Made by a program: the position numbers and the translations under genes | Shown: positions 41,169 through 43,847 of the stretch, piece after piece | Layout: every line of letters starts with the position of its first letter | How positions within the stretch are numbered: position 1 is the first letter of the stretch | DNA from: an uncultured Erysipelotrichaceae bacterium | GTDB taxonomy: Bacteria > Bacillota_I > Bacilli_A > Erysipelotrichales > Erysipelotrichaceae | NCBI GenBank assembly: GCA_902778375.1 | Contig: CACYXJ010000013.1 | Coordinates: 1-44,225, forward strand | Length of the DNA stretch: 44,225 nucleotides | Direction: 5' to 3' | Notes under the pieces: model-generated | What the model was told of the DNA's origin: nothing | Database searches by the model: none | Seen by the model: only the letters and a program-made list of their open reading frames with translations

Positions 41169-41621
41169 TTACCAGGAACGTGAAACATATACATCAAAAC
41201 CTGAGGCGTAAAGACCGCAGGTGCGGCATGCATACATTGAATGAATGTCATTACGCGGATCTTTTTTTGCAATATAAAATGTATGAGCTCCGCATCTGGG
41301 ACAGGCACAGCCAAGCGGATAATGATCATAGTCGACATTTACGGCAAAGCATCCGCCGTCAGTTCCCCAGCAATGGCTGTCGGGTTCGACGGTTGCTGCA
41401 CATCCTGCCGTTGCATAGTCGCGTTCTGTGGTGGCACCACCGCTGACAGAAGAGAGTTCATCCATGGAGAGACTTTTGTATTCAGAACTGGCTTTGACAA
41501 CTTCCTTTATGAATTCAGATCTCTCTTCGCTGATTTCATATCCGTTTTGTATAAGAATCTGTTGTATTTCTTCTGCTGTTTCAGCATTCATTAACTGCTG
41601 AATAAGATCGTCTTTTTCCAT
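41169..41621 (-). CDS. Double-glycine leader peptide with C-terminal zinc-ribbon-like domain
   Basis: 150 residues. Residues 1-62 look like a Nif11/bacteriocin-type leader: an acidic helical part (MEKDDLIQQLMNAETAEEIQ, NGYEISEER) ending in SMDELSSVSGG, the double-glycine site used by exporting peptidase transporters. The remaining 88 residues hold eight cysteines: single Cys in AGCAAT, SHCWG and GGCFA, then CACPRCGAHTFYI and, 21 residues after the CPRC pair, ACRTCGLYASG, a CxxC-x21-CxxC zinc-ribbon-like arrangement. The ATG at 41621 follows AGGAG by eight bases; a TATAAT (41651-41646, minus strand) lies upstream. No exporter or modification enzyme is in the window. It could be a secreted peptide precursor or a protein using the leader for another purpose. 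Function unknown. Confidence 0.75.
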   Translation of the reverse strand: MEKDDLIQQLMNAETAEEIQQILIQNGYEISEERSEFIKEVVKASSEYKSLSMDELSSVSGGATTERDYATAGCAATVEPDSHCWGTDGGCFAVNVDYDHYPLGCACPRCGAHTFYIAKKDPRNDIHSMYACRTCGLYASGFDVYVSRSW

Positions 41622-41645
41622 ATATAAATCTCCTGATTGCATTTA

Positions 41646-41787: not shown

Positions 41788-42579
41788 ATGGCGTTGCTGC
41801 AGATGGATTTCAGATCAAAAGCATTAAAAAGAACAGTTTCAGTGAATGTAATTCTTCCGGTTGAACGGTTTAAAGGACCATATCCGACTTTGTATCTTCT
41901 TCACGGCCTGACAGACAATTACAACAGCTGGCTCAGTAACAGCAGAATCAGGCTTTGGGCAGAAGAAAGCGGTCTTGCAGTTGTCATGCCTTCCGGTGAA
42001 AATTCATTCTATATGGATGTTCTTGTTAAGGATGGATGTCTCGGTGATTTTGGTGAATATGTCGGACGTGAACTTGTAGAAGTAACACGCGAACTGTTTC
42101 CGCTCTCTGATAGTCGTGATGATACTTTCATCGGCGGATTGTCCATGGGAGGATTTGGTGCCTGCCGCAACGGCCTTAAATACTGTGATACATTCAGTAA
42201 GGTTGCAATTCTGTCAGGTGCGCTCCATTTCTATGAATATCCTGCAGACTGGGTCGAAACGAAAGGCAACACAATCGGTGAAGTCAGAAATTTCGGAAAT
42301 CTGGAAGAAACAAGAAATACAGACAGAAATCCCCGTTATCTGATCAATGTAATCAAAAATGATCCGGAAAAGAAATTCCCTGAATTCTATATAGCCTGCG
42401 GTTTGCAGGATGTATTGCTGGAAGCAAACCGTTCAATTGCCAAGGCACTGGAAGAAGCCGGGGCTGATGTTACATATGAAGAGGGGGAAGGTATCCATGA
42501 CTGGTACTTTTGGGATACATATATCCAGCATGTACTGAAATGGCTGAATTACAGTGCCCAAAGTAAAGAGAATAACTGA
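41788..42579 (+). CDS. Esterase D-like serine esterase (PF00756)
   Basis: 263 residues, alpha/beta-hydrolase of the esterase/FrmB/tributyrin-esterase group. Seen: TLYLLHGLTDNYNSWL as the oxyanion strand, FIGGLSMGGFGA with the nucleophile Ser119, CGLQDVLLEAN with the acidic residue and GIHDWYFWD with the histidine. No signal peptide. Relatives act on short acyl esters or S-formylglutathione; the substrate is unknown. GGAGG precedes the ATG. A perfect small palindrome TTCAGT-T-ACTGAA (41748-41760) sits about 30 bases upstream. Divergent from the double-glycine peptide gene. Confidence 0.87.
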   Translation: MALLQMDFRSKALKRTVSVNVILPVERFKGPYPTLYLLHGLTDNYNSWLSNSRIRLWAEESGLAVVMPSGENSFYMDVLVKDGCLGDFGEYVGRELVEVTRELFPLSDSRDDTFIGGLSMGGFGACRNGLKYCDTFSKVAILSGALHFYEYPADWVETKGNTIGEVRNFGNLEETRNTDRNPRYLINVIKNDPEKKFPEFYIACGLQDVLLEANRSIAKALEEAGADVTYEEGEGIHDWYFWDTYIQHVLKWLNYSAQSKENN

Positions 42580-43186: not shown

Positions 43187-43246
43187 TCGATTCTATATAA
43201 TACTTCGCATAATGTATGTTATACGATTCTTTTGTTTTCAATTTCT

Positions 43247-43302: not shown

Positions 43303-43542
43303 ATTGCCATCTTTTTAATAAACAACACTGCATTATTTACATATCAAAAACCTTTATTGTGAAACAAGCCATTTCTATCAAAACGTTTTCAGTAATCACT
43401 TCATAACAGGGCTGTTTCATTTTCTCATGTCACTTGTACTTTTCTTTCCCCCTTCTGATAAATATGGAAATACTTATTCAATTACAGGATAATAACGATG
43501 TATACTGGAATGCTGCTAAAAACAGCAACGGAGAAAATGATC

Positions 43543-43635
43543 ATGAGTGATAACAAAAAAGTCATTGATAATGAAGTGCTGAAAAGCGTAGCAGGCGGTC
43601 AGACCGAAGAAGAGTATTATGCGGAACTGGCATAA
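43543..43635 (+). CDS. Short peptide with double-glycine leader
   Basis: 30 codons from ATG 43543 to TAA 43633. MSDNKKVIDNEVLKSVAGG is a typical bacteriocin/pheromone-type leader (acidic, LKSVAGG at the end) followed by QTEEEYYAELA. GGAG lies nine bases before the ATG; in-frame ATGs at 43498, 43510 and 43537 are alternatives that would lengthen the leader. If translated and exported alone, the mature product would be an acidic 11-residue peptide. If the TAA is a recent mutation, this is the first part of an 86-residue protein continuing to 43806. Both readings are possible; see the next entry. Confidence 0.5.
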   Translation: MSDNKKVIDNEVLKSVAGGQTEEEYYAELA

Positions 43636-43806
43636 TTCGGCCTTCTTGACACCGAAGAACATCTTCTGAATGGTAAAAAATGTGGAGACTGCAACATGGG
43701 CAAACTCAGTTTCTTAAGATATCAGCCAGGTCCATTCGGCAATAAGGAAGCGGTTTATTACTGTGACCTCTGCCATGAATACACCGTCACCGGCCTTCGC
43801 AAATAA
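43636..43806 (+). pseudogene. In-frame zinc-ribbon-like segment after the stop codon
   Basis: Directly in frame after the TAA at 43633, 56 codons stay open to the next stop (43804-43806): FGLLDTEEHLLNGKKCGDCN, then KLSFLRYQPGPFGNKEAV and YYCDLCHEYTVTGLRK. The CGDC and CDLC pairs are 23 residues apart, and the end (Y-x-C-x-x-C-x-x-Y-x-x-T-G) matches that of the 150-residue protein at 41169 (YACRTCGLYASG). There is no ribosome site before it, so it is best seen as the core domain of the preceding leader, cut off by one nonsense codon. Confidence 0.5.
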
Positions 43807-43821
43807 AGATCAGTAAATCGA

Positions 43822-43847
43822 AGAGAGCTGAAAACAGCTCTTTTTTC
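43822..43847 (+). terminator. Terminator after the second leader/zinc-ribbon locus
   Basis: AGAGCTG, AAAA, CAGCTCT (43824-43841) then TTTTTT. A clean intrinsic terminator right after the zinc-ribbon segment, showing that the whole 43543-43806 stretch is one transcription unit. Confidence 0.88.

What the first reader, a model, noticed from the sequence alone, without database searches (positions are those of the whole stretch)
43543..43806. Second double-glycine leader, split by one TAA from a matching zinc-ribbon-like segment
Seen: a 19-residue LKSVAGG leader, 11 further codons, TAA, then 56 in-frame codons with CGDC and CDLC pairs, ending before a clean terminator. The end aligns with the protein at 41169 (Y-x-CxxC-x-x-Y-x-x-[ST]-G), so two diverged members of one family lie about 2 kb apart. 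Inference: either a recent pseudogene, or a real short peptide (mature QTEEEYYAELA) that could act as a signal.
Basis: partly seen in the sequence, partly recalled or inferred. Interest (0 to 1): 0.7.

Follow-up and report, generated by a model that had tools for sequence, protein, structure and literature searches.

The report
Recently broken exported zinc-ribbon miniprotein gene
A small gene for a probably exported, zinc-binding miniprotein of rumen Erysipelotrichaceae has been cut in two by one stop codon; intact relatives, including one in the same genome, show that it is a recently broken gene copy and not an 11-residue signal peptide.

Summary
In detail: 43543-43806 holds a double-glycine leader, 11 codons, an in-frame TAA (43633), then 56 codons with two CxxC pairs, with an RBS before and a terminator after. 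Relatives settle what it is. The same genome carries an intact 86-aa paralogue (contig C36, 69% identical) that reads through the TAA position with Lys; four more intact homologues in the genus have Lys or Arg there. The gene at the same place in another species (G106: esterase, dif, gene, methyltransferase) is also broken, but by different lesions: lost start, two 1-base deletions in the leader, a TGA elsewhere. G044 has the place without the gene. All 36 core residues invariant in intact homologues survive in the window copy, 27 of them beyond the TAA, so the stop is recent (or, less likely, a MAG error). QTEEEYYAELA is just the start of the normal mature domain. The intact family is probably exported by the NHLP-type C39 transporter this genome encodes. 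Kinship with the protein at 41169 is only at the level of 'GG leader plus zinc ribbon'. Ordinary as a pseudogene; the parent family is genus-restricted and without a Pfam or NCBIfam model.

The parts
43530..43535 (+). Ribosome-binding site GGAGAA, 7 nt before the ATG
   Evidence: sequence
43543..43599 (+). Double-glycine leader, 19 codons (MSDNKKVIDNEVLKSVAGG), with hydrophobic residues at -12, -7 and -4
   Evidence: similar leaders in intact homologues
43600..43632 (+). First 11 codons of the mature domain (QTEEEYYAELA)
   Evidence: TEEEYYA is invariant in all intact homologues
43633..43635 (+). Premature TAA stop; Lys or Arg in every intact homologue and Lys in the G106 copy
43636..43806 (+). 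Remaining 56 codons plus stop: zinc-ribbon-like part with CGDC and CDLC; all family-invariant residues kept
43824..43846 (+). Intrinsic terminator AGAGCTG-AAAA-CAGCTCT followed by a T-run; conserved in G106
   Evidence: sequence; alignment with G106
43202..43229 (+). Chromosome dimer resolution (dif) site, marking the syntenic place
   Evidence: 46 of 70 genomes match, nearly all once; 16 of 17 core bases shared with E. coli dif as given in PMC3025954
41169..41642 (-). Intact GG-leader zinc-ribbon protein of a separate multi-copy family (Nif11-like leader, RDYxxxGCxATVE core); compared with, not part of, the broken gene
   Evidence: 92% identical homologue in G044 on the contig of its dif

Best explanation
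43543-43806 is a recently inactivated (nonsense) copy of a gene for an 86-88 aa, genus-restricted precursor protein. Shown: a GG leader joined to a mature domain of about 68 residues with two CxxC pairs, read without interruption in five intact genes including a paralogue in the same genome; and an independently broken copy at the same place beside dif in another species. Inferred for the intact gene: the leader is cleaved after Gly-Gly and the folded, zinc-binding miniprotein is exported by the genome's NHLP-type C39 peptidase/ABC transporter pair, to act outside the cell, probably in competition or cell-cell interaction. In the window copy translation stops after 30 codons, so no zinc ribbon is made. 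The paralogue on contig C36 may cover the function.
For: Intact paralogue in the own genome, 86 aa, no stop, 69% identical across the TAA at E 2.7e-35. Intact homologues in G032, G049, G007 and G109. Lys or Arg at the TAA column in all. Copy in G106 at the same place (esterase, dif, gene, conserved terminator, methyltransferase) broken by other lesions: ATG to ACG, two 1-base deletions in the leader, TGA at the Leu/Trp column, two invariant Gly lost. G044 has the same place without the gene. dN 0.17 against dS about 2.1 between window and G106 shows past selection on the full-length protein. All 27 invariant residues beyond the TAA are kept; simulation gives less than 5% chance of that beyond about 0.05 neutral substitutions per site. 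NHLP exporter pair TIGR03796 and TIGR03797 above their cut-offs in the same genome.
Against: The genome is a draft of 112 contigs, apparently a MAG like its named relatives, and no reads could be checked, so a consensus error at 43633 is not excluded, although two neighbouring substitutions (GAA AAA to GCA TAA) relative to G106 make it less likely. All other family features remain intact, so the copy looks healthy apart from the stop. Export, cleavage and zinc binding are inferred; no intact copy was seen beside a transporter of this kind.
Confidence: 0.84

Rival explanations
1. The TAA is a consensus or assembly error and the gene is intact in the living organism.
For: No other damage: RBS, start, leader, all 36 invariant core residues and the terminator are intact.
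Against: The codon before it also differs (GAA to GCA), so two close base changes would both have to be errors or one real. The gene at this place is already broken in G106 and absent in G044.
Confidence: 0.09
2. A functional short precursor: 30 codons, cleaved after GG to release QTEEEYYAELA as a secreted signal.
For: Good RBS, GG leader with hydrophobic residues at -12, -7 and -4, NHLP-type exporters in the genome. The pre-stop part is highly conserved against G106 (8 synonymous, 1 nonsynonymous difference).
Against: That conservation is what the full-length family shows anyway: TEEEYYA is invariant in intact proteins. No relative has a stop there, G106 has lost the start and the leader frame, and the post-stop part still bears the marks of selection.
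Confidence: 0.03
3. The TAA is read through, or translation restarts at ATG 43696, so a C-terminal product is still made.
For: The post-stop codons show no decay; ATG 43696 has GGAG with an 8-nt spacer before it.
Against: TAA followed by T is generally a strong stop (own knowledge). A restart product would lack the leader and the first CxxC. No homologue shows such an arrangement.
Confidence: 0.04

Closest known systems
Double-glycine leader precursors exported by C39 peptidase ABC transporters (PCAT/AMS; TIGR01847, PF10439; ComA and LahT substrates)
   Same: Short acidic leader with hydrophobic residues at -12, -7 and -4, ending in GG; C39 transporter in the genome
   Different: Cargo is a 68-residue CxxC/CxxC domain rather than a small bacteriocin; models match only below cut-off or not at all; no linked transporter or immunity gene seen
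NHLP/Nif11 precursor system (TIGR03793, TIGR03798 with TIGR03796/TIGR03797; PMC2887384)
   Same: Genome holds the ABC1/ABC2 export pair above cut-offs; scattered precursors; the 41169 family has a Nif11-like leader (TIGR03798 at E 0.0014, below cut-off)
   Different: The window gene's leader is short and not Nif11-like; its core is conserved, not hypervariable
EbfG1-4 of Synechococcus elongatus (PMC4997328)
   Same: Small GG-motif proteins secreted with the help of a C39 peptidase transporter; their shown role is in biofilm formation
   Different: No sequence comparison was made here; CxxC pairs are not a described feature of EbfG proteins (own knowledge)
NrdR-type zinc ribbon
   Same: Best structural match of the predicted mature domain (VIA Z 4.5, rmsd 2.5 over 42-44 residues)
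   Different: Z below 8, 18-19% identity; only the generic zinc ribbon is shared, and NrdR is a cytoplasmic repressor without a GG leader

Membership tests
86-aa GG-leader zinc-ribbon family of this genus (defined here) | Leader ending in GG followed at once by xTEEEYYA | tested here: met
86-aa GG-leader zinc-ribbon family of this genus (defined here) | All invariant core residues, including both CxxC pairs and GKLxFxxYQxGxFGNxEAxY | tested here: met
   36 of 36 core invariants kept
86-aa GG-leader zinc-ribbon family of this genus (defined here) | One uninterrupted reading frame | tested here: not met
   TAA at 43633; hence a pseudogene copy, not a functional member
Nif11-like leader family TIGR03798 | Score above the curated cut-off for the Nif11-like leader | tested here: not met
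   No TIGR03798 match for the window gene or its paralogue; the 41169 protein scores 18.9 against 32.3
Class II bacteriocin GG signal (TIGR01847/PF10439) | Score above the curated cut-off | tested here: not met
   PF10439 14.5 bits against cut-off 27.1; TIGR01847 not reported for the window gene
C39/NHLP exporter substrate | Exporter encoded in the same genome | tested here: met
   C4 pair above cut-offs, plus a diverged pair on C25 below them
C39/NHLP exporter substrate | Cleavage after GG and secretion | not testable with these tools
   needs a protease assay or secretome
Family of the 41169 protein (RDYxxxGCxATVE) | RDY-x-x-x-GC-x-ATVE-x-x-S-x-C core after GG | tested here: not met
   Absent from the window gene and its homologues; no BLASTP alignment; hhalign 77% on GG and CxxC only
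Zinc ribbon fold | Two CxxC knuckles on beta-hairpins | tested here: inconclusive
   AlphaFold model of the L014 homologue, pLDDT 74, three strands; best match NrdR zinc ribbon, Z 4.5

The most novel reading that the evidence does not exclude
This rumen genus makes a varied class of exported zinc-ribbon miniproteins: at least four dissimilar GG-leader families, each with a C-terminal CxxC/CxxC domain, probably sent out by NHLP-type exporters as folded metal-binding effectors rather than as modified peptides. The window copy is one member caught in the act of loss.
Probability: 0.4. Interest if true: 0.45.

Novelty: new member of a known kind. Interest (0 to 1): 0.22.

Why it matters
The locus itself is an ordinary, recent pseudogene, and showing that removes a false lead for an 11-residue signal. 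It points to a small protein family without a Pfam or NCBIfam model, and to a recurring design in these rumen bacteria (GG leader plus zinc ribbon, with NHLP-type exporters in the genome) that would be worth testing on the intact paralogue.

Tried and rejected
Viral contigs: no relative. Plasmids: none. PDB by sequence: nothing significant. Pfam and NCBIfam: only sub-threshold hits. Relatives outside the genus: none in 40 genomes of the order. Conserved neighbour such as an immunity gene: the intact copies sit in unrelated surroundings, save G049 and G007, which are near-identical copies. Modification enzymes: no YcaO; one LanM-like protein on C1 with no GG-leader ORF found near it by a motif scan; no link to this family shown. 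Promoter scan: not above chance. Close kinship with 41169: rejected by BLASTP, weak by profiles. Literature searches turned up no paper on GG-leader zinc-ribbon proteins among the listed results.

Full report
What is in the window. GGAGAA lies 7 nt before the ATG, and a 7-bp hairpin with a T-run follows. The leader has Ile at -12, Leu at -7 and Val at -4; the ComA consensus quoted in PMC6363468 is Leu(-12)-(X)3-Glu(-8)-Leu(-7) before the double-Gly motif.

The two halves are one gene. A DNA search of the own genome found a second place, C36:5114-5282, that matches across the TAA. It is an intact 86-aa ORF: MAEENKVEEVKLAQIAGG-QTEEEYYAEYEKYGLLDTEEHLLQGKKCDFCNRGKLQFLRYQQGRFGNKEAIYRCSLCNEYAVTALRK. 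As a protein query it matches the window locus at 69% identity, E 2.7e-35, with one TAA inside. Intact homologues occur in G032, G049, G007 and G109. At the column of the TAA they carry Lys or Arg. In named records the relatives are MAGs of ruminant-gut Erysipelotrichaceae and Solobacterium. None was found in 40 genomes of other genera of the order, in viral contigs or in plasmids.

The place on the chromosome. In G106 (its contig corresponds to record RUG13885) the same order occurs: esterase (95% DNA identity), dif site, a transporter gene that looks DMT-type by eye, the gene in question, terminator, then a methyltransferase-like gene on the other strand. The G106 copy is also broken, but differently: the ATG has become ACG, the leader has two 1-base deletions, a TGA stands at the Leu/Trp column, and two invariant glycines are Ser. 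At the window's stop it reads Lys. G044 has esterase, dif, transporter and methyltransferase with no trace of the gene in between. So the gene has been damaged more than once at this place, and is missing from it in a third genome.

Age of the stop. Over the core, window against G106 gives dN 0.17 and dS about 2.1, so the protein was under purifying selection, as a whole, for most of the time since the two diverged. dS is close to saturation and the sample is 70 codons, so the ratio is rough. In the window copy all 36 core columns invariant among intact homologues are unchanged, 27 of them after the stop; simulated neutral drift would leave them all intact less than 5% of the time beyond about 0.05 substitutions per site. 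The stop is therefore recent. A consensus error remains possible, but the neighbouring codon also differs from G106 (GAA to GCA, AAA to TAA).

Why not a signal peptide. QTEEEYYAELA is the start of the ordinary mature domain; TEEEYYA is invariant in full-length homologues. No relative ends there, and the G106 copy could not make it. I give this reading 3%.

What the intact protein probably does. The genome has a C39-peptidase ABC transporter and partner on C4 that score above the curated cut-offs for the NHLP export pair (TIGR03796, 924.1 bits against 853.3; TIGR03797, 718.5 against 709.4), and a diverged pair on C25 below the cut-offs. Cleavage after GG and export is the natural inference but is not shown. 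The model of a homologue (pLDDT 74) resembles zinc ribbons, best NrdR, Z 4.5, too weak for a functional claim. The intact copies share no neighbour across lineages, so a bacteriocin with its own immunity gene is not indicated.

Relation to 41169. That protein belongs to a separate, expanded family (seven matches in this genome, itself included) with a Nif11-like leader and the core RDYxxxGCxATVExxSxC before its zinc ribbon. BLASTP finds no alignment with the C36 paralogue; hhalign gives 77%, E 2.2e-5 for the single comparison, resting on the GG site and the CxxC pairs. They share a design; common descent is possible but not established. At least two more GG-leader proteins with two CxxC pairs were seen in the genome (C36 3490-3732; the C11 locus L085).

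Verdict. It is a recently broken member of a small, genus-restricted family of GG-leader zinc-ribbon proteins: low interest in itself, modest interest for the family.

Noticed in passing
window 43202-43229: A dif (Xer) site, ACTTCGCATAATGTATGTTATACGATTC. With up to 2 mismatches its core is found in 46 of 70 genomes of the genus, once in nearly all of them, and it shares 16 of 17 core bases with E. coli dif. The window end therefore probably lies at the replication terminus; the GC skew in the window is too weak to tell.
   Followed up: yes
window 41169-41642 (-) and G000 contigs C47, C61, C1, C11, C7: Expanded family of Nif11-like-leader proteins with conserved core RDYxxxGCxATVExxSxCWxxDGGC followed by a zinc ribbon; seven matches in this genome, present in 6 of 70 genomes, no Pfam or NCBIfam model above cut-off.
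   Followed up: partly
G016:C77, G106:C29, G044:C21 (L077/L081, L072/L078, L080): Further copies of the 41169 family look split between frames or truncated by a stop, which suggests frequent decay of such genes in the genus.
   Followed up: no
L088 3490-3732 (-), L085, L088 5410-5610 (+): Other GG-leader small proteins: two with two CxxC pairs in dissimilar sequences, and one 66-aa GG-leader ORF without CxxC directly downstream of the intact C36 paralogue.
   Followed up: no
L093 2876-5602 (G000:C1): A 908-aa LanM-like protein with a LANC domain in a genome with many GG-leader precursors; its substrates are unknown and no GG-leader ORF was found near it by a motif scan.
   Followed up: partly
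L032 4727-6172 (-): A radical SAM/SPASM protein lies two genes from the intact G109 homologue; not noticed at the other intact loci.
   Followed up: partly
window 41788-42579 against G106:C44:75-890: The esterase is 95% identical in DNA between window and G106 while the region beyond dif is about 73%, which hints at recent recombination beside dif.
   Followed up: no
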